From positions 1-64,000 of the forward strand of contig NZ_FRCD01000020.1 of the NCBI RefSeq assembly GCF_900142785.1: a stretch of DNA of 64,000 nt. The letters run 5' to 3'. The translations under genes were made by a program, and so were the position numbers. Positions 30,100-42,791 of the stretch are shown one piece after another (positions within the stretch are counted from its first letter, which is position 1; every line of letters starts with the position of its first letter). Under the pieces are notes generated by a model. It worked only from the letters and a program-made list of their open reading frames with translations. It had not been told where the DNA came from and searched no databases. The stretch is from Chryseobacterium carnipullorum. GTDB lineage: Bacteria; Bacteroidota; Bacteroidia; Flavobacteriales; Weeksellaceae.

Positions 30100-30540
30100 A
30101 TGGAAATCAAGGAAGACCTCATCAATATACATCACTTTCTGCCGCATCGTGAGCCCATGCTGATGGCAGATTATATTCTGGAACTGACCAAAGAAAAAGT
30201 TGTGACTTCCTTTGAAATAAAAGAAGATAATATCTTTGTCCACAACGATGAATTTGTAGAAGCCGGACTTATTGAAAATCTGGCTCAGACCTGTTCTTCA
30301 ATTCTCGGACAGAGTTTTTTCGAAAATCCTGAAGCAGATACCAAAGTGATTGGTTTTATTACCAACATCAAAAAAATTGAATTGTTTGCCCTTCCAAAAA
30401 CAGGCGATAAGATCATTTCAAAAGCCTCGCTGATCTCTCAGTACGAAAATATCTGTACGATCTTTTGCGAAACCTTTAATCAAGGTGAATTGCTGATCAG
30501 AGCGGAAATCAATCTGTTTATTCAGGAAGTGAAATCTTAA
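30100..30540 (+). CDS. Hotdog-fold 3-hydroxyacyl-ACP dehydratase (FabZ-like)
   Basis: The 146-residue protein has both catalytic regions: FLPHREPMLMADYI (His about residue 16) and AGLIENLAQT (Glu about residue 54). Dehydratases of this kind make the trans double bonds of the aryl polyene chain. It lies 5 bp after its His-less paralogue, and the pair could form a heterodimer. The gene ends in the first bases of a 208-bp tandem duplication. Confidence 0.85.
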   Translation: MEIKEDLINIHHFLPHREPMLMADYILELTKEKVVTSFEIKEDNIFVHNDEFVEAGLIENLAQTCSSILGQSFFENPEADTKVIGFITNIKKIELFALPKTGDKIISKASLISQYENICTIFCETFNQGELLIRAEINLFIQEVKS

Positions 30541-30566
30541 GAATCAATTGATTTAAAATATTTAAG

Positions 30567-30590
30567 CCAACCCGAAAAGGTTGGTTTTTT
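30567..30590 (+). terminator. Terminator of flexirubin operon part 1 (copy 1)
   Basis: CCAACC (30567-30572), loop CGAAAA, GGTTGG (30579-30584), then six T. It is 26 bp past the dehydratase stop. Confidence 0.85.
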
Positions 30591-30774
30591 CTTTGAGAGG
30601 TAGTAAAGAGAGAAACTGTATAATGAGAAGATACTGAATTAGCAGAAGTTCTCAAAGCCACTTTTACTGTTCTTTTACCCAACCTCATAAGACATTGAAA
30701 TACCACCAGTAATCTCCAGCTTTTCTCCCCAATATTTAAAAATCTTAAGAATCAATTGATTTAAAATATTTAAG

Positions 30775-30798
30775 CCAACCCGAAAAGGTTGGTTTTTT
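30775..30798 (+). terminator. Terminator copy 2, in the duplicated unit
   Basis: The same hairpin and T run as at 30567, displaced by exactly 208 bp through the tandem duplication. Confidence 0.85.
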
Positions 30799-30986
30799 CT
30801 TTGAGAGGTAGTAAAGAGAGAAACTGTATAATGAGAAGATACTGAATTAGCAGAAGTTCTCAAAGCCACTTTTACTGTTCTTTTACCCAACCTCATAAGA
30901 CATTGAAATACCACCAGTAATCTCCAGCTTTTCTCCCCAATATTTAATAACCCTTATTTTTCGATATATTTGATGAAAATAAAGTC

Positions 30987-31256: not shown

Positions 31257-31279
31257 AAACCCTTTTTAATATTAAATGT

Positions 31280-31341
31280 AGAAAACAAAAAGCGGAGCAT
31301 TGCTGCTCCGCTTACAAAATTGGTATTATCAAAGTTTAGTA
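31280..31341. repeat. 62-bp direct repeat, left copy
   Basis: This stretch is identical to 39823-39884, where it forms the terminator, stop codon and last Tyr codon of the M16 peptidase gene. Here no peptidase gene is attached. The two copies bracket about 8.5 kb. Confidence 0.95.
31291..31312. terminator. Bidirectional hairpin terminator in the left 62-bp repeat
   Basis: AGCGGAGCA (31291-31299), loop TTGC, TGCTCCGCT (31304-31312), preceded by AAAACAAAA so that the minus strand has a T run. It would end the small gene upstream and the minus-strand block to the right. Confidence 0.8.
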
Positions 31342-31378
31342 GCGGAAGAAAACCTTTTTGGGTAGAGAAAAAAAAGAT

Positions 31379-31852
31379 TTAATTAATTTCATCAATTCTA
31401 AGCTTCGCTGCTTTTAGAATAAGTTTGGCCGCTTCATAAAAACGCCCATGATATTGTTCAGAAATCCCTTGAGCATACAATTTCTTTTCGATTGAATCTT
31501 TTTTTAGAATAATTGAATTATTTCCTCCATCCAAAATACCCACCAGCCGATTTGGACTTTGCGGCAGCGCTATATCTTTTTGATGAGTTTTTATGATGAG
31601 TTCGCAGATTTTTTTATACTCTGCGATAGTAATTCTTCTATTGTCATATTGTTCATTATTCTTTGAAGACTTTACAATCACAGGTTTTTTTCTTTTGCTT
31701 ATTGTAGGGATTAAAGTGACAAAAAGCTGATCTCCTTTTATCACCATTACATTTTCATGTTTAAGCTGAATATATTCCTTTGCATTCTTTTGTGAAGTAC
31801 AGGAAAGCAAGAAAAGAGAGCACAAGATGATATAAATAGATGTAATTTTCAT
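31379..31852 (-). CDS. Small lipoprotein, unknown function
   Basis: I start at the Met at 31852, which gives a clean lipoprotein signal (MKITSIYIILCSLFLLSC, lipidated Cys at residue 18); an upstream Met at 31888 would spoil it. The mature part of about 140 residues ends RFYEAAKLILKAAKLRIDEIN. The same C-terminal pattern occurs in the gene at 32994-33452 (YATKLIVMAAGLKMEDL), so the two are distant paralogues within the block. No known domain is recognised. Confidence 0.7.
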   Translation of the reverse strand: MKITSIYIILCSLFLLSCTSQKNAKEYIQLKHENVMVIKGDQLFVTLIPTISKRKKPVIVKSSKNNEQYDNRRITIAEYKKICELIIKTHQKDIALPQSPNRLVGILDGGNNSIILKKDSIEKKLYAQGISEQYHGRFYEAAKLILKAAKLRIDEIN

Positions 31853-31899
31853 AGTTGAATTTCTAATAGATAGGACCGACGAATACATGTTCTAAACAT

Positions 31900-32159
31900 T
31901 CATTGTTTTGTTAGAATAATTTCTTTAGGAAGTGCCTGTGGAAATGGATGGTATTATAATATTGGTAATCCGTTTTCATCATGTTACTCTCTAGATTAAG
32001 TTTCCAGTTAAGCTGTGTTTTGGAAGAATCTGTAAAGTTGATAATCATATTTCCCGTAGTGTTGCAAAAATCCGAATCAACATAAACCAAAGAGTATTTA
32101 TCATCTGATTCTATTTCCTTTTTGACATAAAGCCTCCCCTCTAAAATCTTGAAGAGTGA
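31900..32159 (-). pseudogene. Decayed remnant of a DUF6705-like gene
   Basis: No long open frame exists here, but minus-strand translation gives a C-terminal half like that of the array proteins. One frame has CNTTGNMIINFTDSSKTQLN and later TDYQYYNT; after a one-base shift near 31943-31950 the next frame continues HPFPQALPKEIILTKQ and stops. The intact array proteins end YYNSVIQGNDFPINFPKD IVLTKQ (split here), so stop position and spacing agree. The N-terminal half and signal peptide are missing, and the remnant abuts the gene at 32163. Confidence 0.75.
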
Positions 32160-32162
32160 CCT

Positions 32163-32978
32163 CTACTGTGAATATAGCAAGTATAATGTGTCAATAAAGC
32201 TATCATTTGCAATAATTTCCGCTTCTTTCCCTTTAAAAGAGAAATATTGATATTGAGAATTTTCTTTTCTTAATTTTTCGAATTTTTCTTGACTAATATT
32301 TACCCCATTAAAGAAGTAATAATCTGGTGGCGGATCACTTACAATCACAACAGCTCCAATTTCAAATCCTCCATAGTTGATTTCAAATTTTTTATTTTCA
32401 ATTTTTTCATTTCTTGAGAAAATTATTGACTGATCTCCGTAATCGTAACCACTGATACTATCCTGTACTTTATTATCGTTTCGTCTTGTTTCATTAAGCT
32501 TGTCAAAATTAAAGTACAATACATTTTCACTCTTAATAAAATCATTAGGGACTATTAATAAGAAATATCCATTTTCATTAGTAGTGGTTTTTATAAATTT
32601 GCTTTTAGAAATAAAAAATACCTCCGCATTAGAAATCACTTTTTGAGATTCTTTAAAAATAAGCCTTCCTGATATTTTTGTACTATCCGTTACTGTTTGT
32701 TCAGCAGCCGTAGGAAAGTTATTATTAACCTGAGCTTGTGAAAAATTTAGGTTTGTTACCAAAATAATCCCAGCAGCAATCATAGATAAACGTTTTGAAG
32801 GAATTCTCCCGCAGACATCCTTACCTTCGGCATTAGTGATAATATTTTGAATCTCTTGATTGGTTTTGCCTGTAAAATCTACTACACATTTAGAACATTT
32901 TTCACAGAACTTATCTTGCAAAAAATCCTGCATATTTTCCCATTGTTCAGGACATGGGCTATTTATTCTGATTTTCAT
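32163..32978 (-). CDS. Membrane protein with N-terminal Cys-rich domain and carboxypeptidase-regulatory-like domain
   Basis: The 271-residue protein begins with a cysteine-rich module (PCPEQWENMQ, then FCEKCSKCVVDFTGKT, residues 8-41) that recurs in Chryseobacterium-type proteins before a single membrane helix (about 66-81, LSMIAAGIILVTNLNFS). An extracytoplasmic part follows with a carboxypeptidase-regulatory-like or CNA-B-like beta domain (SGRLIFKESQKVISNAEVFF, then TTTNENGYFLLIV, about 103-145). Function is unknown; a sensor or anchoring role is conceivable. It is followed by the DUF6705-like remnant. Confidence 0.7.
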   Translation of the reverse strand: MKIRINSPCPEQWENMQDFLQDKFCEKCSKCVVDFTGKTNQEIQNIITNAEGKDVCGRIPSKRLSMIAAGIILVTNLNFSQAQVNNNFPTAAEQTVTDSTKISGRLIFKESQKVISNAEVFFISKSKFIKTTTNENGYFLLIVPNDFIKSENVLYFNFDKLNETRRNDNKVQDSISGYDYGDQSIIFSRNEKIENKKFEINYGGFEIGAVVIVSDPPPDYYFFNGVNISQEKFEKLRKENSQYQYFSFKGKEAEIIANDSFIDTLYLLYSQ

Positions 32979-32993
32979 AACATTATTTTTGGT

Positions 32994-33452
32994 TTATCTA
33001 TAATCTATTAAATCTTCCATTTTAAGCCCCGCAGCCATTACAATCAACTTGGTAGCATACCAAAAATCTTTTTGAAATGCACTCCTCTGAGATTTACTGT
33101 TTAATCCTGAAGCATAATATTTTTTTTTATTTCCAAAATCATCATTTAAAGTTATTGTTGTGAAAGATCCATCCATTAAATTATTCTTCACTGAAATTGT
33201 ATCATTTTTAATCCTTAGAATTGCATTACAGATTTTATCCAATCTTTTCTTCGAGATTTTTGAACTATATCCTATATTTTTGTTTTTCTTTACAAAAACT
33301 ATGATTTCATTTCTTTTGAAGGCTTCGAACGAAATATCAACCTTCTTTCCAATTATAATTGCGTTTGAATGTTGAAATTTCACATAAACATCCTGAGAAA
33401 ATAAAGATTGGGAGAAGAGTAAAAAGACAAATACAAATAATATTTTACGCAT
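32994..33452 (-). CDS. Small secreted protein, unknown function
   Basis: The 152-residue protein has a signal peptide (MRKILFVFVFLLFSQSLFS) and a lysine-rich mature part ending WYATKLIVMAAGLKMEDLIDYR. It resembles the C-terminal region of the lipoprotein at 31379-31852 (short pattern K(L/x)xxICxxI and A-x-KLI-x(2)-A), suggesting distant paralogy. It lies 9 bp after the last array gene (33462-34037), so it is probably read in the same transcript. Confidence 0.7.
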   Translation of the reverse strand: MRKILFVFVFLLFSQSLFSQDVYVKFQHSNAIIIGKKVDISFEAFKRNEIIVFVKKNKNIGYSSKISKKRLDKICNAILRIKNDTISVKNNLMDGSFTTITLNDDFGNKKKYYASGLNSKSQRSAFQKDFWYATKLIVMAAGLKMEDLIDYR

Positions 33453-33461
33453 AATTAGAGT

Positions 33462-34037
33462 TTATTGTTTTGTTAATACAATATCTTTAGGAAAATTAAT
33501 AGGGAAATCATTACCCTGTATTACAGAATTGTAATACGGGCAAGTATCATCTATAGTGCTTGGGTTGTAGATCAAATGTAAGCTCATTTGGGTTTTGGCA
33601 TTATCTAAAAATGTCACATCCAGATTCGCTGTTTTACCACATATACCAGTAACGAAATAAATTTGTTTTTGAGAAGGATTGGAAAATTTAAAATTAATTC
33701 CTTTAAATTGAGGTTTTTGGTTATCAAAATTAGCAATTCTATCAATGGAAACTATTCCGTTTGCTTCTATGACTTTTCTTTCTCCTAAAATTCGATCTTG
33801 ATAAATCCCTTCTCCGTTAGTTCCTACAAAATATTTTACCTTTTTAAATTGAATATAGAGAGTTTTGCCCATCCAATTTCCTTTCCATAATCCTACATAA
33901 AGATCTAATTCTCCATTTAAATCTTTAAAGTATGAGTTATTGGGTGCATCTGCTCCATTTGCATTTAGAGAGTATACTTGTTGGGAAAATAACAATGAGC
34001 TTAGTAATATTGTTATTATTGAAAATATCTTTTTCAT
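33462..34037 (-). CDS. DUF6705-like secreted protein, array copy 1
   Basis: The 191-residue protein has a signal peptide (MKKIFSIITILLSSLLFSQQ). The mature part starts VYSLNANGADAPNNSYFKDL and has the shared core LYVGLWKGNW (about 50-59) and paired cysteines (CGKTANLDVTF and DDTCPYY) that could form a disulfide. The first 44 residues equal those of array copy 3 and the YFVTGICGKT region equals that of copy 7. It is the promoter-distal copy of the array. The family name is from memory; function is unknown. A lipocalin-like barrel is possible from the GLWKGNW motif but unproven. Confidence 0.85.
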   Translation of the reverse strand: MKKIFSIITILLSSLLFSQQVYSLNANGADAPNNSYFKDLNGELDLYVGLWKGNWMGKTLYIQFKKVKYFVGTNGEGIYQDRILGERKVIEANGIVSIDRIANFDNQKPQFKGINFKFSNPSQKQIYFVTGICGKTANLDVTFLDNAKTQMSLHLIYNPSTIDDTCPYYNSVIQGNDFPINFPKDIVLTKQ

Positions 34038-34053
34038 AATTGCGTTATCCTAA

Positions 34054-34072
34054 AACCTCCAAAAAGGAGGTT
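34054..34072 (-). repeat. Array spacer hairpin 1
   Basis: AACCTCC (34054-34060), five-base loop, GGAGGTT (34066-34072), between copies 2 and 1. On the minus strand it is followed by TTAGG, so it may act as a weak terminator or mRNA-stabilising hairpin. Confidence 0.75.
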
Positions 34073-34076
34073 AATT

Positions 34077-34661
34077 TTACTGTTTCGTTAGCACTATATC
34101 TTTAGGAAAATTAATAGGGAAATCATTACCCTGTATTACAGAATTGTAATACGGGCAAGTATCATCTATAGTGCTTGGATTGTAGATCAAATGTAAGCTC
34201 ATTTGGGTTTGGGCATTATCTAAAAAAGTAACATCCAGATTAGCTGTTTTACCACACATATTTTTCGGTGCAAAATAAAATTGTTTTTGGGATGGATTAG
34301 AAAATTTTGGAGCAACACCATAAAACTCAGAATATTGTTCATCAAAAGTAGAAATCTTATCAATTTCAATTGAACCATTTGAGCTGATAATTTTTCGTTC
34401 ACCTACAATTCTATCCCTATAAATAAAATGAGGGCTATTGGGCTTTCCTAAAGGATATTTTACTTTTTTAAATTGTATATAAATAGTTTTTCCATCCCAA
34501 TTTCCTTTCCATAATCCTATATATGGATTGAGTTCGCTGTTTAAATCTTTGAGATATGACCCCTGTGGTATATTCAATCTGTCTTCGTAATTTAGAGGGT
34601 ATTCTTGTCCATATATTATAATTGATAAAAATATCGATAGTGAAATTATTATATTTTTCAT
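34077..34661 (-). CDS. DUF6705-like secreted protein, array copy 2
   Basis: A 194-residue member of the array with signal peptide MKNIIISLSIFLSIIIYG and mature start QEYPLNYEDRLNIPQGSY. The core IGLWKGNWDGKTIYIQFKK (about 49-67) and the two conserved cysteines are present. The middle segment (PLGKPNSPHFIYRDRIVGER) most resembles that of copy 7, and the C-terminal region is the invariant one. The upstream spacer to copy 3 carries a different hairpin from the rest of the array. Function is unknown. Confidence 0.85.
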   Translation of the reverse strand: MKNIIISLSIFLSIIIYGQEYPLNYEDRLNIPQGSYLKDLNSELNPYIGLWKGNWDGKTIYIQFKKVKYPLGKPNSPHFIYRDRIVGERKIISSNGSIEIDKISTFDEQYSEFYGVAPKFSNPSQKQFYFAPKNMCGKTANLDVTFLDNAQTQMSLHLIYNPSTIDDTCPYYNSVIQGNDFPINFPKDIVLTKQ

Positions 34662-34670
34662 AATTTTATT

Positions 34671-34692
34671 AAAGCCTCTCTTCAGAGGCTTT
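34671..34692 (-). terminator. Hairpin between array copies 3 and 2
   Basis: AAAGCCTCT (34671-34679), loop CTTC, AGAGGCTTT (34684-34692): a 9-bp perfect stem unlike the other array spacers. It could end or weaken transcription after copy 3. Confidence 0.65.
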
Positions 34693-34695
34693 ACA

Positions 34696-35275
34696 TTATT
34701 GCTTTGTTAATACAATATCTTTAGGAAAATTAATAGGGAAATCATTGCCCTGTATTACAGAATTGTAATACGGACAAGTATCATCTATAGTGCTTGGATT
34801 GTAGATCAAATGTAAGCTCATTTGGGTTTTAGCAGCATTTAAAAATGTTACATCTAGATTTGCAGTTTTACCGCACATATTGTCAGGCGCAAAATAAAGC
34901 TGGGGAGATTGCGAAGAATCAAATTTTTTATGTATTCCGCTAAATTCGTGAAATTGATTATTATCAAAATTAGTTATTTTATCTACTTCAATAATGCTAT
35001 TAGTATTAACTATTTTTCTTTCTCCTAAAATCATATCCTTATATTCCTTTTCCATTTATACCAAGAAAATATTTTTGTTTTTTTAATTCAAGAAATACTA
35101 TTTTTCCATTCCAATTTCCCTTCCATAATCCAATATATGGATTTAATTCTCCATTTAAATCTTTAAAGTATGAGTTATTGGGCGCATCTGCTCCATTTGC
35201 ATTTAGAGAGTATACTTGTTGGGAAAATAACAATGAGCTTAGTAATATTGTTATTATTGAAAATATCTTTTTCAT
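34696..35275 (-). pseudogene. DUF6705-like array copy 3, disrupted by a one-base frameshift
   Basis: The first 78 codons (35275 down to about 35042) encode the signal peptide and IGLWKGNWNGK core and stop after NGKGI. The next frame resumes at once with YKDMILGERKIVNTNS and runs to the invariant C-terminus at 34696. Adding one base near 35040-35046 (coding strand GGAATATAAGGATATG) restores a protein of about 193 residues like its sisters. The N-terminal part equals copy 1 and the C-terminal part equals copy 6. A sequencing error cannot be excluded. Confidence 0.85.
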
Positions 35276-35291
35276 AATTGCGTTATCCTAA

Positions 35292-35310
35292 AACCTCCAA
35301 AAAGGAGGTT
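35292..35310 (-). repeat. Array spacer hairpin 2
   Basis: Same stem as at 34054 (arms 35292-35298 and 35304-35310), located between copies 4 and 3. Confidence 0.75.
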
Positions 35311-35314
35311 CATT

Positions 35315-35896
35315 TTACTGTTTCGTTAGCACTATATCTTTAGGAAAATTAATAGGGAAATCATTACCCTGTATTACAGAATTGTAATACGGGCAAGTAT
35401 CATCTATAGTGCTTGGATTGTAGATCAAATGTAAGCTCATTTGGGTTTTGGCATTATCTAAAAAAGTAACATCCAGATTAGCTGTTTTACCGCACATATT
35501 TTTCGGTACAAAATAAAATTGTTTTTGCGATGGATTATTAAACTTTGAGGAAATGCCTCTAAATTCAGGTAATTGTTCATCAAAATTAGAAATTCTGTCT
35601 ATTTCAACTGCGCCACTTGAATTAATAATTTTTCTTTCTCCTAAAATTTTATCAATATAAATTCCATCATTAGGATTAGTTCCTAAATAATATTTTATTT
35701 TTCTTAAATCCAGATATATTGTTTTATCATTCCAATTACCTTTCCACAGCCCAATATAATGATTAAGTTCACCATCCATATCTTTAAAATAGGCTCCATT
35801 TGGTAAATCACTTTTCCCTTCTGTATGTAAAGGATAAACCTGAGAATATATTGATACTGATATGAATGATAATAATATTAAGAATATGTTTTTCAT
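35315..35896 (-). CDS. DUF6705-like secreted protein, array copy 4
   Basis: A 193-residue member with signal peptide MKNIFLILLSFISVSIYS and mature start QVYPLHTEGKSDLPNGAYFK. It has IGLWKGNWNDKTIYLDLRK (about 49-67), a distinctive middle (YYLGTNPNDGIYIDKILGER) and the invariant C-terminus with both cysteines. Its start phrase TEGKxDLP is shared with copy 7. Function is unknown. Confidence 0.85.
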   Translation of the reverse strand: MKNIFLILLSFISVSIYSQVYPLHTEGKSDLPNGAYFKDMDGELNHYIGLWKGNWNDKTIYLDLRKIKYYLGTNPNDGIYIDKILGERKIINSSGAVEIDRISNFDEQLPEFRGISSKFNNPSQKQFYFVPKNMCGKTANLDVTFLDNAKTQMSLHLIYNPSTIDDTCPYYNSVIQGNDFPINFPKDIVLTKQ

Positions 35897-35913
35897 AATT
35901 ACGTTATCCTAAA

Positions 35914-35932
35914 ACCTCCAAAAAGGAGGTTT
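35914..35932 (-). repeat. Array spacer hairpin 3
   Basis: Same stem (35914-35920 and 35926-35932), between copies 5 and 4. Confidence 0.75.
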
Positions 35933-35935
35933 ATT

Positions 35936-36520
35936 TTACTGTTTCGTTAGCACTATATCTTTAGGAAAATTAATAGGGAAATCATTACCCTGTATTACAG
36001 AATTGTAATACGGGCAAGTATCATCTATAGTGCTTGGATTGTAGATCAAATGTAAACTCATCTGTGTTTTGGCAGCATCTAAAAATGTTATATCCAGATT
36101 GGCTGTTTTACCACACATATTTTTCGGTACAAAATAAAATTGTTTTTGGGATGGATTAGAGTATTTAGCATTAACCCCACTGAATTCATGATATTGGTTG
36201 CTATCAAAATTAGAAATCCTATCTATCAAAATACTTCCATCTGCATTAATTATTTTTCGTTCACCTAATATTTTATCTTGATAAACACCGTTGGTAGGAG
36301 TTGTTCCTAAATAATATTTAGCTTTTTTTAATTCTATATAAATTATCTTTCCATTCCAATTTCCTTTCCATAATCCTATATAAGGGTTGAGTTCTCCGTC
36401 TAAATCTTTAAAATATGATCCTCTAGGTGCATCCTCAACATGAATGTTTAAAGGATATATCTGTTGTGAATAAAAAATTGAGGATGATAATGCTATCAGT
36501 AATAAAAATATGTTTTTCAT
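35936..36520 (-). CDS. DUF6705-like secreted protein, array copy 5
   Basis: A 194-residue member with signal peptide MKNIFLLLIALSSSIFYS and mature start QQIYPLNIHVEDAPRGSYFK. The first 58 or so residues match copy 6 exactly, including the signal. The middle (KYYLGTTPTNGVYQDKILGER) is closest to copy 4, and the C-terminal domain is invariant apart from DITFLDAAKTQ. Function is unknown. Confidence 0.85.
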   Translation of the reverse strand: MKNIFLLLIALSSSIFYSQQIYPLNIHVEDAPRGSYFKDLDGELNPYIGLWKGNWNGKIIYIELKKAKYYLGTTPTNGVYQDKILGERKIINADGSILIDRISNFDSNQYHEFSGVNAKYSNPSQKQFYFVPKNMCGKTANLDITFLDAAKTQMSLHLIYNPSTIDDTCPYYNSVIQGNDFPINFPKDIVLTKQ

Positions 36521-36536
36521 AATTGCGTTATCCTAA

Positions 36537-36555
36537 AACCTCCAAAAAGGAGGTT
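36537..36555 (-). repeat. Array spacer hairpin 4
   Basis: Same stem (36537-36543 and 36549-36555), between copies 6 and 5. Confidence 0.75.
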
Positions 36556-36559
36556 CATT

Positions 36560-37138
36560 TTACTGTTTCGTTAGCACGATATCTTTAGGGAAATTTATTG
36601 GAAAATCATTACCCTGTATTACAGAATTGTAATACGGACAAGTATCATCTATAGTGCTTGGATTGTAGATCAAATGTAAGCTCATTTGGGTTTTAGCAGC
36701 ATTTAAAAATGTTACATCCAGATTAGCTGTTTTACCGCACATATTGTCAGGCGCAAAATAAAGCTGGGGAGATTGTGAAGAATCAAATTTTTTATGTATT
36801 CCGCTAAATTCGTGAAATTGATTATTATCAAAATACGTAATTTTATCGATTTCTATAACACCATTAGAATTAATTATTTTTCTTTCTCCATATAATCTGT
36901 CTTTGTAATAAGAGTGACTACCAGTTGAAGCAGTTTTAATTTTTCTAAACTCCAGATATACTATTTTTCCATTCCAATTTCCTTTCCATAATCCTATATA
37001 AGGGTTGAGTTCTCCGTCTAAATCTTTAAAATATGATCCTCTAGGTGCATCCTCAACATGAATGTTTAAAGGATATATCTGTTGTGAATAAAAAATTGAG
37101 GATGATAATGCTATCAGTAATAAAAATATGTTTTTCAT
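36560..37138 (-). CDS. DUF6705-like secreted protein, array copy 6 (mosaic)
   Basis: A 192-residue member that is clearly chimeric. The first 58 or so residues equal copy 5, the segment KTASTGSHSYYKDRLYGER is unique, and from NNQFHEFSGIHKKFDSS to the end it equals copy 3. The signal peptide, IGLWKGNWNGK core and conserved cysteines are intact. Function is unknown. Confidence 0.85.
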   Translation of the reverse strand: MKNIFLLLIALSSSIFYSQQIYPLNIHVEDAPRGSYFKDLDGELNPYIGLWKGNWNGKIVYLEFRKIKTASTGSHSYYKDRLYGERKIINSNGVIEIDKITYFDNNQFHEFSGIHKKFDSSQSPQLYFAPDNMCGKTANLDVTFLNAAKTQMSLHLIYNPSTIDDTCPYYNSVIQGNDFPINFPKDIVLTKQ

Positions 37139-37154
37139 AATTGCGTTATCCTAA

Positions 37155-37173
37155 AACCTCCAAAAAGGAGGTT
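37155..37173 (-). repeat. Array spacer hairpin 5
   Basis: Same stem (37155-37161 and 37167-37173), between copies 7 and 6. Confidence 0.75.
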
Positions 37174-37177
37174 TATT

Positions 37178-37762
37178 TTATTGTTTTGTTAGCACTATAT
37201 CTTTAGGAAAATTAATAGGGAAATCATTACCCTGTATTACAGAATTGTAATACGGGCAAGTATCATCTATAGTGCTTGGATTGTAGATCAAATGTAAGCT
37301 CATTTGGGTTTGGGCATTATCTAAAAAAGTAACATCCAGATTAGCTGTTTTACCACATATACCAGTAACGAAATAAATTTGCTTTTGGGATGGATTGGAG
37401 AATTTAAAGTTAATTCCATCATATTCATGATATGGATTGTTATCAAAAGTTGAAATTTTATCTATCTCAACAGCACCATTAGAATTAATAATTTTCCTTT
37501 CACCCACTATTCTATCATAATAGATATAATGGACATCTGATAATTTTCCAGAAAGGTATTTTATTTTTCTAAACTCTAGATATACTATTTTCCCATTCCA
37601 ATTTCCTTTCCATAAACCAACATAAGGGTTCAGTTCATTATTCAAATCTTTAAAATACGAACCACTTGGTAAATCAATTTTTCCTTCAGTATATAATGGA
37701 TAGATTTGTTGTGAATAAATTAAATTTGATATTAATATCAATAGTAAGAATATATTTTTCAT
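37178..37762 (-). CDS. DUF6705-like secreted protein, array copy 7 (promoter-proximal)
   Basis: A 194-residue member with signal peptide MKNIFLLLILISNLIYS and mature start QQIYPLYTEGKIDLPSGSYF. It has VGLWKGNWNGKIVYLEFRK, a middle segment (YLSGKLSDVHYIYYDRIVGER) related to copy 2, and YFVTGICGKT as in copy 1. It is the first array gene after the JAMM-like lipoprotein gene, 18 bp downstream of it without a hairpin, so both should share a transcript. Function is unknown. Confidence 0.85.
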   Translation of the reverse strand: MKNIFLLLILISNLIYSQQIYPLYTEGKIDLPSGSYFKDLNNELNPYVGLWKGNWNGKIVYLEFRKIKYLSGKLSDVHYIYYDRIVGERKIINSNGAVEIDKISTFDNNPYHEYDGINFKFSNPSQKQIYFVTGICGKTANLDVTFLDNAQTQMSLHLIYNPSTIDDTCPYYNSVIQGNDFPINFPKDIVLTKQ

Positions 37763-37780: not shown

Positions 37781-39067
37781 TTAAGGACAAGGTATTGGGT
37801 TCGCTAATGAATTTCCATTTAATGAAATTTGTGAGCTTTTACCATTACTATCTATAGAATACATTTTCGCTCCATTTATATTCATTTTGTCTCTCATAAA
37901 TTTCAGAAAATTTTTCTGATAAAATTCAGGTGATTGATTAGCTTTTGCTAAATCGTAATCATTAACATATTTCTTATTTAACTCAGTATCAATCGTATTC
38001 TGATCAAATATAGACAAACTGGCAACATCTATACCATCACCTCTTAATTGATAAACGGTACCATCTGGGTTTACAACGTTCATAAACACATTTTCCTGAG
38101 GAATACCATTATTATTAGCATTAATAAGGAGTTTAATGAAAGTATTAATGTCATCGGGAGAGAATATAGGAATTAATCTTTCATGATGACTGTGCATATA
38201 TCCGTACGTTGTATTAAAGAATTTAAAATCTATAGTGTTTGATCCTACCACATTACTTAATTGCTGATATTGTGTAGCCGTTTGTCCAGGTGGAGGGTTA
38301 TTTACTCTAAAACCATATTCAAAAGACTCTCCCGTTTTTGTTTTTAAATAATCAACCTTCGCTTTGTAAGTGGCATCATTATTCTGAATTTTTAGCTTAG
38401 CACAAGGCGTTTGAGGTTGCGATTGAGTACCACCACCTCCGGGATAAGGATACGTAGGTCCTTGAGGATTAGGATTTGAAGGTCCATCTCCGCCTTGCAT
38501 TTCATCACATTTAGTAATATATCCCGTTACCTCCCAATGACCAGAACCATTGGGTTCATTTTCATTATCAGGATACCACATTTCTACCACAGTAACAGAA
38601 CACAATTTTAATCTTCCCGCCATAGAGCTTTGTTCTCTGGTTTGTTCTACAGGTTTTCTTTTTTTTGCAGTGGTATATCCCTGGAAGAACTTAAGATGTT
38701 CCTTATTATTATCATAGACAAATGTTATCTGATCACCATATCTGGGAACTTCTATGCACGCAACAATGTCTTTTCCGTTGGCAACAGGAACTACTAAAAA
38801 GCTTTCATCGGTATAGCCCATGGTCATAGCATAATCCCATAGAGGTATTCCATTTACTTTCTTGATTTGAGCTTCATTTTCATGATAGACCTTCATTACA
38901 TTTTTTATGTAGGTTTCATCTTCTTTCCACAGACTTTTACTGGTGTATTCTTTAGAATAAATCAGAGGGGGATCAGAGGATGAAATCACATCATCATGGA
39001 CGCAGGAATGAAGCACAAAACCCAGAACTACCATCATCGATAGCCATAGCATAATTTTTTTTCTCAT
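37781..39067 (-). CDS. Lipoprotein with a JAMM-like metal motif, heading the array
   Basis: The 428-residue protein has a lipobox (VLGFVLHSC, Cys at residue 22), an N-terminal domain with IKNVMKVYHENEAQI, a Pro/Gly/Gln-rich linker (about 195-222) and a C-terminal domain. That domain has E250 (SFEYGF), H292-S-H294 (YMHSHHERL) and D305 (FSPDD), which fits the spacing E-x(n)-HxH-x10-D of JAMM/MPN metalloproteases, with the usual Ser shifted by one place. It is 18 bp upstream of array copy 7. Family membership is inferred from these few residues only. Confidence 0.65.
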   Translation of the reverse strand: MRKKIMLWLSMMVVLGFVLHSCVHDDVISSSDPPLIYSKEYTSKSLWKEDETYIKNVMKVYHENEAQIKKVNGIPLWDYAMTMGYTDESFLVVPVANGKDIVACIEVPRYGDQITFVYDNNKEHLKFFQGYTTAKKRKPVEQTREQSSMAGRLKLCSVTVVEMWYPDNENEPNGSGHWEVTGYITKCDEMQGGDGPSNPNPQGPTYPYPGGGGTQSQPQTPCAKLKIQNNDATYKAKVDYLKTKTGESFEYGFRVNNPPPGQTATQYQQLSNVVGSNTIDFKFFNTTYGYMHSHHERLIPIFSPDDINTFIKLLINANNNGIPQENVFMNVVNPDGTVYQLRGDGIDVASLSIFDQNTIDTELNKKYVNDYDLAKANQSPEFYQKNFLKFMRDKMNINGAKMYSIDSNGKSSQISLNGNSLANPIPCP

Positions 39068-39327: not shown

Positions 39328-39708
39328 ATGAACAAAACTATTGGCAAAAGAATAAGAAACTTCAGAGAAGCTAAAGGCTTTTCTCAGGAGGAACTCGCAG
39401 AAAGGCTAAAAATTTCACGTTCTGCCTATCAGCGGCTGGAAAATGGCGAAACCAATTCCTGGATCAATCATATAGAAAGTATCTGTACCTCATTGGAAGT
39501 AAATTTGGATGATATTTTAAAACCTGAAGAAGGATTTGTTCAGGTTAATAATAACAATGAATCTTCTAATGATAATGGAAGTGGTGTAATTCAGAACCAA
39601 ACGATCAACTATAATCTTTCAGACAAACTCATCGAACAATACGAAGAAAGGCTAAAACAAAAAGATGAAGAAATTAAATTTCTAAAAAGCCTTATAGAAA
39701 AAAAATAA
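39328..39708 (+). CDS. XRE-family transcriptional regulator
   Basis: The 126-residue protein has a classic helix-turn-helix (IGKRIRNFREAKGFSQEELA, then LKISRSAYQRLENGETNSWI, residues 4-48) followed by an asparagine-rich linker and a C-terminal coiled coil (EQYEERLKQKDEEIKFLKSL), which suggests dimerisation. It is divergent from the lipoprotein/array operon and lies next to the right 62-bp repeat, so it is the best candidate to control the array. Its own promoter overlaps the shared intergenic region, so autoregulation is plausible. Confidence 0.9.
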   Translation: MNKTIGKRIRNFREAKGFSQEELAERLKISRSAYQRLENGETNSWINHIESICTSLEVNLDDILKPEEGFVQVNNNNESSNDNGSGVIQNQTINYNLSDKLIEQYEERLKQKDEEIKFLKSLIEKK

Positions 39709-39822
39709 CAATATTAGGTAGATCAGACTTATTCTGCCGAAGTATTCAAAAACCGAAAATTCTCCCAATCTAAAACTCCTTCACCTTAAATACAGGGAAA
39801 CAGGAAGAAAAAAAATAAATCC

Positions 39823-39884
39823 AGAAAACAAAAAGCGGAGCATTGCTGCTCCGCTTACAAAATTGGTATTATCAAAGTTTAGTA
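39823..39884. repeat. 62-bp direct repeat, right copy
   Basis: Identical to 31280-31341. It contains the terminator hairpin (39834-39855), 23 bp up to the M16 stop codon, the stop codon and the last Tyr codon of that gene. Identity ends one base into the next codon. Confidence 0.95.
39834..39855 (-). terminator. Terminator of the M16 peptidase gene
   Basis: AGCGGAGCA, loop TTGC, TGCTCCGCT with a T run on the minus strand, 23 bp past the stop. It may also stop transcription coming from the XRE gene. Confidence 0.85.
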
Positions 39885-42791
39885 CCCGAAGATCTCTTCA
39901 AGAGATACCTCCTGGAATGTTCCCATTTTATTGATAGATTCCATATTCAGGTTTTCTTTTTTACCGATGATGGCCGTGTTGTATTTTACCGGCTTTACCT
40001 CAGTATCATAGAAACTGGTAAGTTGAGGCAAAGTTAATCCCTGAATTTCAGAATAAACATCTTTTCTGATATCATAGTCAACCCCTAGTTTTTTAAGCGC
40101 CATTTGGCTAAAGAAAATATTCGTTCTGTTAATTCTGTTTGAAGCAATCTGCTTCAGCGCAGAACCTCTTGAGTTCTCAAACTGTGCCGGAATCTGCGGA
40201 AGAGATGCCATAAGGTCACTCATCGCATTAACTGCCAAAGGAAGCTTATTAGCCTGAGTTCCGATATAGTTCGTGATATAATTGGCATGCCCTTTTTCGG
40301 TAGCATTCGCGTAAGAAACATAAGCAGAATAAGCCAGTGACTTACTTTCTCTGATCTCCTGGAATACGATAGAAGACAAACCTCTTCCGAAATACTCATT
40401 GAAAACATTCGCTTTTCCGAAGTTGCTTACATTCACTTCATTTCCTTTCGCTACTTTAGACATTTCCATCTGAACCATGTCGTAGTTTGTAAAGTATACT
40501 TTTCCTTCTGCTGCAGGCTCCTGATATTCTTTAGCTGTTGCAGGCTGAAGGCTCGCTGTTGCAATATAAGGTTTCACCGCTTTCTCCAGACCTGACTGAT
40601 CCTGTCCGTAAAGCAAAACTTCATAAGGTGATTGGTTCAGCGCTTTGATCTTTTTGGTCAATTCTGCCACATCGATGCTTTCAAGACGCTCTTTAGAAAC
40701 AACATCTGCCATTCTGGAATTTTTTCCATATTTAGCATAGTTCGTCAAAGCATTCATGATTCTTGTCTTATCTTTTTTAGCAGCATCTCTGGACTCCAGA
40801 ATCGTCTTCACTGTCTTGCTATAAATGTCTTTATCCGCTTTTACATTGGTCAGCCAATGATTCATCAGCTCTACGCCTTTCTTCATATTACTTTCCAATC
40901 CGCTTAATGTAATAAAGATCTGGTCATTGGACGTCCTGAAACTGTAAGTGATTCCTAATTTATAGAACTCCCCTTTCAGCTGCTCAGGAGTATATTTATC
41001 GGTCCCAAGATATTCGAAAAGGGTTACTGCTATTGAAAGTTCTTTATCATTATCTGTTCCGAAAGGGAAAATATAACTGATTTGAGCCACATCATTATAC
41101 TTGTTCTTTACAAAGCTTATTTTTTTATCTTTGATTTGGAAAGTCTGGATTGCAGTCTTATAATCGATAAATTCCGGCTTGCTTTCAGATACTTTTGCCG
41201 CTAAAATATCTTTAAGGAATGGGGATTGAGCATCTCTGTTCAGCTTGATCGGAGTAATTCCGGGATTCTGTACACGAACCAGTTTATCATTCACTCCTTT
41301 TTCCTTGTAAACGACCACATAATTATCTTTGAAAAATTCATTTGCAAATTTTACAACATCTGCCTTCGTTATTTTTTCATATTGGTTAATATCATCAAGC
41401 TCCTGCTCCCAGCTTATTCCGTTGATGTAGGTGCTGTAAAGATTAGTGGCAAGACCGTCTGCCGTCTCCCAGGTCTTCATACGCTGCACCTTCTTGTCAT
41501 TAACGATTGCTTTCAGCATCCAATCCGGGAACTGACCTTTTTTCACTAAATCCAGCTGATCTAATAACAGCTTTTTAGCATCATCAAAACTCTGCCCGTC
41601 TTTCGGAGTTACAGACATTGCAAAAGCACCATATGTTTTGAAAGGGGATTCATAAGCTCCTGCACTTTGTACTTTCTGCTTCTGATTAATGTTGAGATCA
41701 ATAAGACCGGCATCACCTCTGTTGCTTAAAATTTCTGCCACCACATCAGCCAACCTCGCGTTCTGAGTTCCATTAGAGTCCGATCTCCAGGCCATCGTCA
41801 TTCTCGGTGTACTTGGACTTTTTACCGTTCTTGTCACAATGCTTTCCATCGGCTGCTCAGATACCATCTTTTTCATCGGCAGCTCTTTGTATTTGAAAGT
41901 TCCAAAATACTGATCTACCATTTTAATGGTCTTATCAAAATCCAGATCTCCTACCAAAACAACAGCCATATTATTAGGCACATAGTACGTATCAAAATAT
42001 TTATGAATAGCAACCATTGATGGACTCTTCAGGTGTTCTGAAGTTCCTATTGTTGTCTGCTGTCCGTTCGGATGTTTTGGGAAAAGGGCCTCCATCATCG
42101 CATAGTTGACAAGACGTCCGTCATTATCCTGAGCTCTGTTGTATTCTTCATATACCGCCTCCAATTCTGTGTGGAAAAGACGTAATACCAATTCTGAAAA
42201 ACGTTCTTTTTCTACTTTAAGCCATTTTTCAAGCTCATTGGAAGGAATGTTGTTTTTATAAACCGTTTCATCTAACCATGTGTGGGCATTTGTTCCTGTT
42301 GCTCCTAATGAAGAAATCGCTTTGTCATATTCATTGGCAATGGCATATTTGGACGCTTCCTGAGAAACCTCATCTATTTTTTTATAGAGTAATTTTTTCT
42401 TTTCAGGATCCTTTTCAGCTTTGTGCTGCTCATAAAGGTCAGAGATCTGCTGCAAAAGTACTTTTTCCTTTGCCCAGTCCTGAGTTCCCAAATGAGAAGT
42501 TCCCTTGAAAACCATATGTTCCAGGTAGTGAGCTAAACCGGTATTATCACCCGGATCATTATTTGATCCCGTTCTTACCGGAATATAGGTCTGAATTCTT
42601 GGCGCATCATCATTTTTAGCCAGATACACTTTCAATCCGTTTTTCAGGGTATAAACTCTCACCCCGGTTTGATCATTTTTCACGGTTTCATAGGTATACC
42701 CCTGGCTGTCCGTCACCTTCTGAGTATCAAACTTCTGTGCCATTGCGTGCAACATGCAGAAAAGCGATACAGAAATAAAAAATTTCTTCAT
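39879..42791 (-). CDS. M16-family zinc metallopeptidase, periplasmic
   Basis: The 970-residue protein has a signal peptide (1-18, ending AMA) and the full double M16 architecture. The N-terminal domain carries the inverted zinc motif HYLEH (H88, H92) with the distal glutamate in the ELEAVYEEYNRAQ helix about 75 residues later. The C-terminal half holds inactive M16 domains. It would degrade peptides in the periplasm. It stands alone, between the block and flexirubin part 2, and its 3' end is duplicated 8.5 kb away. Confidence 0.92.
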   Translation of the reverse strand: MKKFFISVSLFCMLHAMAQKFDTQKVTDSQGYTYETVKNDQTGVRVYTLKNGLKVYLAKNDDAPRIQTYIPVRTGSNNDPGDNTGLAHYLEHMVFKGTSHLGTQDWAKEKVLLQQISDLYEQHKAEKDPEKKKLLYKKIDEVSQEASKYAIANEYDKAISSLGATGTNAHTWLDETVYKNNIPSNELEKWLKVEKERFSELVLRLFHTELEAVYEEYNRAQDNDGRLVNYAMMEALFPKHPNGQQTTIGTSEHLKSPSMVAIHKYFDTYYVPNNMAVVLVGDLDFDKTIKMVDQYFGTFKYKELPMKKMVSEQPMESIVTRTVKSPSTPRMTMAWRSDSNGTQNARLADVVAEILSNRGDAGLIDLNINQKQKVQSAGAYESPFKTYGAFAMSVTPKDGQSFDDAKKLLLDQLDLVKKGQFPDWMLKAIVNDKKVQRMKTWETADGLATNLYSTYINGISWEQELDDINQYEKITKADVVKFANEFFKDNYVVVYKEKGVNDKLVRVQNPGITPIKLNRDAQSPFLKDILAAKVSESKPEFIDYKTAIQTFQIKDKKISFVKNKYNDVAQISYIFPFGTDNDKELSIAVTLFEYLGTDKYTPEQLKGEFYKLGITYSFRTSNDQIFITLSGLESNMKKGVELMNHWLTNVKADKDIYSKTVKTILESRDAAKKDKTRIMNALTNYAKYGKNSRMADVVSKERLESIDVAELTKKIKALNQSPYEVLLYGQDQSGLEKAVKPYIATASLQPATAKEYQEPAAEGKVYFTNYDMVQMEMSKVAKGNEVNVSNFGKANVFNEYFGRGLSSIVFQEIRESKSLAYSAYVSYANATEKGHANYITNYIGTQANKLPLAVNAMSDLMASLPQIPAQFENSRGSALKQIASNRINRTNIFFSQMALKKLGVDYDIRKDVYSEIQGLTLPQLTSFYDTEVKPVKYNTAIIGKKENLNMESINKMGTFQEVSLEEIFGY

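What the first reader, a model, noticed from the sequence alone, without database searches (positions are those of the whole stretch)
33462..37762. Mosaic tandem array of seven secreted proteins with constant ends and variable middles
All seven copies share an identical C-terminal 40 residues, a similar signal and LWKGNW core, and differ between about residues 65 and 125. Blocks are shuffled: copies 1 and 3 share the N-terminal part, 5 and 6 share another, 3 and 6 share the C-terminal half, and 1 and 7 share YFVTGICGKT. This is what repeated gene conversion or unequal crossing-over leaves. A recombining cassette array of exported proteins could vary surface antigens, inhibitors or immunity factors.
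Basis: partly seen in the sequence, partly recalled or inferred. Interest (0 to 1): 0.78.

Follow-up and report, generated by a model that had tools for sequence, protein, structure and literature searches.

The report
Shuffled immunity genes behind bacterial toxin
A Chryseobacterium-like bacterium carries seven reshuffled copies of what is most likely an antidote gene right behind a putative protease toxin gene, so it may be protected against several variants of a toxin that rivals use.

Summary
The mosaic array is real. Seven tandem DUF6705 (PF20448) genes lie at 33462-37762 (-); six are intact, copy 3 is frameshifted. Recombination is shown: homoplasy permutation 0 of 2000; AU tests reject 9 of 12 cross-segment trees. 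All seven share the last 43 residues; residues 58-125 vary most. In 120 loci of the genus plus the window, a DUF6705 domain starts within 600 nt downstream of 121 of 128 such C-domain ORFs; the seven without carry other HxH-like ends followed by other small exported proteins, and two SprT-like ends behind the same leader are followed by DUF6438 proteins. Leaderless C-domain+DUF6705 pairs occur. C-domain distances track those of the adjacent DUF6705 (r=0.57); leader distances do not (r=0.03). Best reading: a polymorphic toxin with a homogeneous polyimmunity array, its constant ends serving as scaffold and recombination arms, its middles as specificity. The 8.5-kb island is bracketed by 82-bp repeats and absent from the same site in three relatives. 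Toxicity and binding are untested. Against a simple model, the closest toxin relative's immunity protein resembles copy 6 more than the adjacent copy 7.

The parts
37781..39067 (-). Putative toxin, 428 aa: lipoprotein leader (1 to about 150), Pro/Gly-rich linker, C-terminal JAMM/MPN-like metallopeptidase domain (about 216-427)
   Evidence: E250, H292, H294, D306 and lipobox C22 invariant, S303 in at least 90%, in an alignment of 74 leader+C proteins with an adjacent DUF6705; fold rows of the JAMM/MPN kind, top Z 7.7; no Pfam hit in the window protein
37178..37762 (-). DUF6705 copy 7 (toxin-adjacent), 194 aa, signal peptide
   Evidence: PF20448 E 2.1e-10; 18 nt after the toxin gene
36560..37138 (-). 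DUF6705 copy 6, 192 aa; window copy closest to the immunity protein of the nearest toxin relative
35936..36520 (-). DUF6705 copy 5, 194 aa
35315..35896 (-). DUF6705 copy 4, 193 aa
   Evidence: PF20448 E 4.6e-12
34696..35275 (-). DUF6705 copy 3, frameshifted: ORFs 35039-35275 and 34696-35055 in different frames
34077..34661 (-). DUF6705 copy 2, 194 aa
33462..34037 (-). DUF6705 copy 1, 191 aa
   Evidence: PF20448 E 3.7e-10
34038..37177 (-). Range holding the six intergenic spacers (five of 39 nt, one of 34), each with a hairpin just before the next gene; five share the stem ACCTCC/GGAGGT, the one between copies 3 and 2 has another stem
   Evidence: RNA folds -10.6 to -14.7 kcal/mol, z -3.1 to -5.2; sequences
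32994..33452 (-). Companion gene, 152 aa, exported, weakly DUF6438-like; 9 nt after the array
   Evidence: Pfam DUF6438 E 0.006, below cut-off; 21 matches in 19 of 173 genomes, at least six of them within about 30 nt of a DUF6705 match by coordinates
32163..32978 (-). 271-aa protein with a Cys-rich N-terminus and a CarboxypepD_reg-like domain; a similar-looking protein follows DUF6705 in L151
   Evidence: PF13715 E 1.7e-4, below cut-off; L151 neighbour
31914..32141 (-). Degenerate 3' end of an eighth DUF6705 gene, closest to other genomes' DUF6705
   Evidence: tblastn of the DUF6705 set, E down to 3e-24
31379..31888 (-). Second companion-like gene, 169 aa, 29% identical to the 152-aa companion
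   Evidence: E 1.3e-6
39328..39708 (+). Divergent XRE/Cro-type regulator
   Evidence: HTH_3 E 2.2e-12; a similar, always divergent regulator within 1.5 kb upstream of 40 of 93 toxins with enough upstream sequence
31268..31349 (.). Left copy of the 82-bp direct repeat bracketing the island
   Evidence: 93% identical; single copy at the same site in three relatives
39811..39892 (.). Right copy of the 82-bp direct repeat (hairpin/terminator-like stretch and last codons of the M16 peptidase gene)

Best explanation
The locus is a polymorphic-toxin locus with a homogeneous polyimmunity array. The 428-aa lipoprotein is probably displayed at the cell surface (its Cys is followed by acidic residues, similar to Bacteroidota surface-export signals) and carries a JAMM-type metallopeptidase domain that acts in the envelope of a neighbour. 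The DUF6705 proteins are exported lipocalin-like barrels that stay in the periplasm, bind the JAMM domain of matching toxins and block it. Near-identical 3' ends and a conserved LWKGNW core keep the scaffold and give homology for recombination; the divergent middle (about residues 58-125) sets which toxin variant is recognised. Duplication, divergence and recombination between copies thus gave one cell several antidote specificities. Shown: the mosaic, the linkage, the swapping of ends behind one leader, the toxin-immunity covariation, the conserved JAMM residues, the island. Inferred: toxicity, delivery, site of action, binding, and the role of the middle in specificity.
For: Linkage: a DUF6705 domain starts within 600 nt downstream, same strand, of 89 of 96 leader+C-domain ORFs and 32 of 32 C-domain ORFs without a full match to this leader, 121 of 128 in all (by ORF start 87 of 96 and 31 of 32). 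The seven without are the seven ORFs whose C-ends I saw to be of other HxH-like types (L083, L084, L119, L122, L169; L110, L154), followed by other small exported families, one in four tandem copies. Two SprT-like zincin ends behind the same leader (L127, L182) are followed by DUF6438 proteins. Reverse direction: of 20 loci picked through DUF6705 (12 outside the genus, 8 inside), 17 have an ORF matching the C-domain profile directly 5'. Displaced cassettes: leaderless C-domain+DUF6705 pairs in L176, L186, L152 and one in L099. Covariation (Mantel): C-domain vs adjacent DUF6705 r=0.567 (n=108), leader vs DUF6705 r=0.034, p=0.22 (n=80); in 35 loci with two or more copies, adjacent 0.529, second 0.266, last 0.231; by DUF6705 segment 20-64 0.402, 65-125 0.583, 126-194 0.542. 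Folds: DUF6705 model pLDDT 93, barrel resembling lipocalins and avidins; toxin C-domain resembles JAMM/MPN domains, top Z 7.7, with invariant E/HxH/D in 74 aligned. Export: two or more acidic residues at +2..+6 after the lipobox Cys in 85 of 104 toxins (9 had no lipobox by my rule) and in none of the 124 DUF6705 proteins with a lipobox; 64 more have no lipobox (literature PMC5080379, passages). Recombination. 3' end homogenised also at silent sites: pS 0.22 against 0.61 in the middle.
Against: No toxicity, cleavage or binding data. The nearest toxin relative (G149/L069, C-domain 84% identical) has an immunity protein closest to copy 6 (0.60 in the middle, 0.72 overall; copy 5 0.71 overall), not to the toxin-adjacent copy 7 (0.50, 0.65), so the cognate copy is uncertain. 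Copies further downstream also correlate with the toxin above zero (p 0.001 each), and the middle correlates only slightly better than the C-terminal segment, so 'the middle sets specificity' is weakly supported. pN/pS in the middle is 0.43: no positive selection seen. The leader-only control (1 of 9) is poor: six of the nine are split genes whose C-domain is the next ORF; the clean alternatives are only two SprT-like and seven other HxH-like ends. A pattern HxH-x(5-12)-SxxD is found in only 86 of 128 C-domain ORFs; those seen to miss it include fragments, long loop inserts and a Ser-to-Ala change. Fold matches are middling: Foldseek best E 0.02 and 0.06; the toxin's Z stays under 8, and the best DUF6705 row is a designed barrel (Z 9.3). 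The leader's CVHDD is like, not identical to, the published export signals. Mosaicism is not general: permutation 1 of 1000 in L176, 10 in L099, 40 in L146, but 584 in L100, 731 in L086, 164 in L152, 701 in L186.
Confidence: 0.77

Rival explanations
1. Self-protection only: the lipoprotein is an ordinary secreted or surface metallopeptidase used on nutrients or hosts, and the DUF6705 proteins are its periplasmic inhibitors, as potempins are for KLIKK proteases of Tannerella forsythia. No interbacterial warfare.
For: Exported small barrel encoded beside a metallopeptidase-like gene; potempin E (8ehd) is among the fold rows (Z 7.0); potempins are small lipoproteins encoded next to, and specific for, their protease, and vary with it (PMC7296668, passages). 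The intact window copies lack a lipobox by my rule and would be soluble.
Against: One protease should need one inhibitor, not six divergent ones; swapping of other catalytic-looking ends behind one leader and leaderless end+inhibitor pairs are marks of polymorphic toxins.
Confidence: 0.15
2. Antigenic variation: DUF6705 proteins are surface antigens and the array is a recombining cassette store that varies what a host or phages see.
For: Mosaic with constant ends and variable middles.
Against: No surface-export-like signal (none of 188 DUF6705 proteins with a lipobox followed by two or more acidic residues); every intact copy has its own start and signal peptide, so no silent store; tight link to JAMM-like C-domain genes in and outside the genus.
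Confidence: 0.04
3. The mosaic is partly an assembly artefact of a draft genome.
For: Draft of 55 contigs; exact repeats up to 208 bp; copy 3 is frameshifted within the region where block identity changes.
Against: The six intact ORFs stay in frame through the block changes and their middles are all different; two arrays in better assemblies also test as recombining (L176 in a 3-contig genome, 1 of 1000; L099 in a 1-contig genome, 10 of 1000).
Confidence: 0.04

Closest known systems
[quoted passage not shown] 2012, PMC3482391; section 39 read)
   Same: Tandem paralogs of one immunity family, same strand, short gaps, no toxin gene between them.
   Different: DUF6705 is not among the families named in that section; the array sits directly behind a full toxin gene; copies are mosaics with homogenised 3' ends, which that section does not describe.
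Tox-JAB-1 with Imm65 (PMC3482391, passages)
   Same: JAB/JAMM-type toxin domain in Bacteroidota with an exported immunity protein.
   Different: Tox-JAB-1 is described with RHS repeats and NxxxE; here the N-terminus is a short lipoprotein leader. No Imm65 match appeared among Pfam hits of three copies at E <= 0.1; that Pfam holds a model of that name is recalled, not checked.
SitA/SitI lipoprotein toxins of myxobacteria (PMC5562445, abstract and passages)
   Same: Outer-membrane lipoprotein leader with swapped C-terminal toxin ends and an adjacent immunity gene.
   Different: SitA is delivered by TraA/B outer membrane exchange, often has SitB, and two of its ends act in the cytoplasm; none of this was tested here.
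Immunity gene arrays by effector displacement in Vibrio cholerae T6SS (Kirchberger et al. 2017, PMC5361080, abstract and passages)
   Same: Active toxin gene followed by further immunity genes. In 34 of 38 multi-copy loci here (the window's included) the copies are not monophyletic, as that model expects.
   Different: The six intact window copies form a clade with only one outside sequence, so here duplication and conversion dominate; no match to the T6SS sheath protein VipB, one weak partial match to VipA.
Potempins and KLIKK proteases of Tannerella forsythia (PMC7296668, passages)
   Same: Small exported inhibitor encoded beside a secreted protease, varying with it.
   Different: In the passages seen, one inhibitor gene directly upstream of each protease gene, and no swapping of ends.
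Orphan immunity arrays (rAID) of gut Bacteroidales (PMC12247911, abstract and section list only)
   Same: Arrays of divergent immunity genes that protect against related toxins.
   Different: SUKH-domain, recombinase-associated and directed at T6SS effectors.

Membership tests
Polymorphic toxin system | Constant N-terminal trafficking region joined to exchangeable C-terminal ends | tested here: met
   Same leader profile with JAMM-like, SprT-like (2) and two further HxH-like types (7) of C-ends
Polymorphic toxin system | Immunity gene directly downstream, specific to the toxin end | tested here: met
   DUF6705 after 121 of 128 C-domain ORFs, not after the seven with other HxH-like ends nor the two SprT-like ones; covariation with the end but not the leader. 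That it confers immunity is not shown
Polymorphic toxin system | Displaced leaderless toxin-end + immunity cassettes | tested here: met
   L176, L186, L152, one in L099
Polymorphic toxin system | Toxicity of the C-end and its neutralisation by the immunity protein | not testable with these tools
   needs bench work
Homogeneous polyimmunity locus | Tandem paralogs of one immunity family, same strand, short gaps, uninterrupted by toxin genes | tested here: met
   Seven copies, 34-39 nt gaps
Homogeneous polyimmunity locus | Copy content differs between strains | not tested
   only one genome per species held
DUF6705 (PF20448) | Match above Pfam gathering score (24.4 bits) | tested here: met
   40.4, 46.6, 41.2 bits for the three copies scanned; 6 of 7 places above the cut-off, the seventh being part of the frameshifted copy
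JAMM/MPN metallopeptidase | E, HxH, S, D metal-site residues | tested here: met
   E250, H292, H294, D306 in all 74 aligned, S303 in at least 90%; over all 128 C-domain ORFs a fixed-spacing pattern fits 86
JAMM/MPN metallopeptidase | JAMM fold | tested here: inconclusive
   The 50 rows listed are JAMM/MPN proteins by title or, for a few, by recall; top Z 7.7, Foldseek best E 0.059
Tox-JAB-1 / Imm65 | RHS-repeat N-terminus | tested here: not met
   Window protein of 428 aa begins with a lipoprotein signal and has no Pfam match at E <= 1
Tox-JAB-1 / Imm65 | NxxxE motif | tested here: inconclusive
   No Asn in the consensus four before E250, but the alignment was not compared with Tox-JAB-1
SitA | Delivery by TraA/B outer membrane exchange | not tested
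   -
Lipocalin-like (calycin) barrel | Eight-stranded up-and-down barrel | tested here: inconclusive
   Z 8.7 to a lipocalin lipoprotein, about 7-8 to avidins, 9.3 to a designed barrel; Foldseek best E 0.02
Potempin | Barrel inhibitor of the adjacent protease | tested here: inconclusive
   Potempin E at Z 7.0 among the rows; no inhibition data

The most novel reading that the evidence does not exclude
The array is a specificity generator for immunity: constant 5' core and 3' ends act as recombination arms so that variable middles are reassorted into new antidotes before the matching toxin is met, a heritable, combinatorial repertoire against rival toxins, carried between strains as a ready-made island.
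Probability: 0.25. Interest if true: 0.82.

Novelty: new variant of a known kind. Interest (0 to 1): 0.62.

Why it matters
It gives a testable role to DUF6705, a family for which the library search found no paper, and to lipoproteins with a JAMM-like end, matched by the window protein in 111 of 173 genomes of the genus and without a Pfam match in the window protein. It offers a natural set of chimaeric immunity proteins on one scaffold, so the question which part of an immunity protein sets specificity can be asked directly. It also points to metallopeptidase-like toxins that act in the cell envelope, with exported barrel inhibitors, as a recurring weapon in Bacteroidota.

Tried and rejected
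Pfam on the toxin and 73 relatives gave no credible family among the 25 of 36 listed (best related hint DUF4329 E 0.0026 in two members; Zhang et al. say Tox-JAB-2 partly overlaps DUF4329). NCBIfam gave only weak hits for array and toxin (best E 0.016 and 0.026, far under their cut-offs); Rfam nothing at gathering score; no tRNA in the window. Diversifying selection: not seen. Simple rule 'adjacent copy is the cognate one': not clear for the window. Acquisition of each window copy from outside (displacement): not supported for this array, since the middles of the six intact copies form a group of 7 leaves with one outside sequence. T6SS delivery: a weak partial VipA match, no VipB match; left open. 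The genome-contig scan gave seven loci, six of them Chryseobacterium, and served to name the genus. Hairpins as terminators on the coding strand: the ten terminator-like sites all lie on the other strand. A paper on C. gallinarum that mentions polymorphic toxins concerns another domain, Ntox23 (PMC9329510, passages).

Dropped rows: 7 leader-only ORFs at contig ends and 5 C-domain fragments (all 5 with DUF6705 downstream) were left out of the linkage counts. DUF6705 ORFs outside 160-230 aa, and 11 of 119 C-domain ORFs without an adjacent full-length copy, were left out of the Mantel tests. For the folding alignments I gave 93 of 106 candidate DUF6705 loci (95 were printed; L089 and L154 dropped by hand) plus 6 window copies, and 73 of 74 candidate toxins (L184 dropped) plus the window's. 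The 8 in-genus loci were picked by hand from the best Pfam places; of the out-of-genus places, further ones in G298 and G365 were not fetched. Of 8 genomes with the island's left-flank gene, the three relatives with the shortest interval were examined; in four others the interval was about 0.5-1.5 kb and was not examined.


Full report
What is there. Seven tandem genes on the minus strand (33462-37762) encode DUF6705 proteins (PF20448). The family search of the whole genome gave 7 matches at E <= 0.01, all in this array. Six copies are intact; copy 3 is frameshifted.

The mosaic. Alignment of the seven genes shows blocks of 92-100% identity that change partner along the gene. A homoplasy permutation test gives 0 of 2000; without copy 3, 0 of 1000. 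AU tests reject 9 of 12 cross-segment trees at p<0.05; the three not rejected involve the short variable segment nt 166-300 (one) and the near-identical 3' end (two). The last 60 codons are homogenised also at silent sites (pS 0.22, pN/pS 0.09), the middle is not (pS 0.61, pN/pS 0.43). In 20 arrays with three or more copies (the window's included) the middle has the lowest identity of three segments in 17, ties in 1 and is not lowest in 2; only 4 of 20 have a C-terminal identity of 0.96 or more. In other arrays with four or more copies the permutation test gives 1 of 1000 in L176, 10 in L099, 40 in L146, and no signal in L100, L086, L152 and L186. So variable middles are common, strong mosaicism is not.

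The upstream gene. 37781-39067 encodes a lipoprotein of 428 aa: leader, Pro/Gly linker and a C-terminal domain. In an alignment of 74 (the window's and 73 leader+C proteins of 415-460 aa with an adjacent DUF6705) E250, H292, H294 and D306 are invariant and S303 nearly so. The predicted model resembles JAMM/MPN domains in the rows listed (top Z 7.7; some rows known as such by recall), although Pfam has no match to the window protein.

Linkage and swapping. I fetched 120 regions, covering the places listed with E <= 3.2e-18. By ORF start, DUF6705 begins within 600 nt downstream of 87 of 96 leader+C-domain ORFs and 31 of 32 C-domain ORFs without a full leader match. Three of the ten misses were start codons called too far upstream; counted from the DUF6705 domain the figures are 89 of 96 and 32 of 32 (one place, L154, counts as a miss here and as a hit). 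The seven remaining misses are the seven ORFs with C-ends of other HxH-like types, recognised by eye: HSHAG-type (HSNAG in L122), followed by a 163-174-aa exported family, and HTHT-type, followed by a 135-136-aa exported protein. The other 121 ends were not typed one by one. Two SprT-like ends behind the same leader are followed by DUF6438 proteins (L127, L182). The leader-only class (1 of 9 with DUF6705) is a poor control, because six of the nine are split genes. Leaderless C-domain ends with their own DUF6705 occur in rows (L176, L186, L152; one in L099). Starting from DUF6705 instead, 9 of 12 loci outside the genus and 8 of 8 hand-picked loci inside it have an ORF matching the C-domain profile directly 5', a few of them broken; of the other three, two have an unmatched lipoprotein-like or leader-matching ORF upstream and one is an orphan. 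DUF6705 occurs in 135 of 173 genomes of the genus (E <= 0.001) and in 17 of 395 drawn across the phylum, six of those 17 from the genus (E <= 1e-5).

Covariation. C-domain distances correlate with those of the adjacent DUF6705 (r=0.567, n=108 of 119 C-domain ORFs), leader distances do not (r=0.034, p=0.22, n=80); copies further downstream correlate less but still above zero (0.529, 0.266, 0.231 in 35 loci, p 0.001 each). This is what a toxin end and its antidote, moving together behind a shared leader, would give. Residues 65-125 of DUF6705 correlate best (0.583), but only slightly better than 126-194 (0.542).

How it most likely works. DUF6705 is predicted with high confidence (pLDDT 93) as a small barrel; the best rows are designed barrels, lipocalin-fold lipoproteins and avidins. 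The toxin's Cys is followed by two or more acidic residues in 85 of 104 cases, similar to Bacteroidota surface lipoproteins (PMC5080379, passages); none of the 124 DUF6705 proteins with a lipobox shows this, and 64 more have no lipobox. So the toxin would face outward and the barrels would stay in the periplasm to block JAMM domains arriving from neighbours. Several antidotes on one scaffold would cover several toxin variants. This last part is inference. One result cuts against the simplest form: the closest toxin relative (84% in the C-domain) has an immunity protein nearer to copy 6 than to the adjacent copy 7.

Origin. The locus is bracketed by an 82-bp direct repeat. In three relatives (G003, G031, G032; M16 protein 96, 93 and 91% identical) the flanking genes sit 81-89 bp apart with one copy of the repeat, and those genomes have no DUF6705 match at E <= 0.001. 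Four more genomes with both flanking genes have 0.5-1.5 kb between them and were not examined. The copies' middles differ at silent sites (0.61) more than the host gene M16 differs from G003 (0.45), which suggests that the array diversified before it arrived here; rates may differ.

Known kind. It fits the homogeneous polyimmunity locus (PMC3482391, section 39) and resembles, without being shown to belong to, Tox-JAB-1/Imm65, SitA/SitI, T6SS immunity arrays and potempins. No paper holding the word DUF6705 was found in the library, and none on JAMM lipoprotein toxins of this kind stood out in the listings, which show titles and abstract starts only; subscription papers are largely not covered.

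The recount replaced the linkage figures; it strengthened the linkage and showed the leader-only control to be weak, so I left the odds as they were.

Noticed in passing
31268-31349 and 39811-39892: 82-bp direct repeat (hairpin plus the end of the M16 peptidase gene) brackets an 8.5-kb island of lower G+C; three relatives have an empty site with one copy. No integrase among the island ORFs scanned with Pfam.
   Followed up: yes
30532-30947: A stretch of about 208 nt after the gene 30100-30540 is tandemly duplicated (seen in the sequence; offset of the two palindromes).
   Followed up: no
L127:3572-5667 and L182:3532-5652: SprT-like zincin end behind the same leader, followed by DUF6438 proteins: DUF6438 may be an immunity family too.
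   Followed up: partly
L122:2309-5890: Another kind of toxin end (HSNAG where relatives have HSHAG) followed by four tandem copies of a different exported 163-164-aa family: a second homogeneous immunity array.
   Followed up: partly
L266:2565-6566: Outside the genus (G562), a JAMM-like lipoprotein followed by four similar-looking DUF6705 copies, the last with a different C-end; too few informative sites for the recombination test.
   Followed up: partly
34662-34695: The spacer between copies 3 and 2 has a hairpin in the usual place but with a different sequence from the other five.
   Followed up: partly
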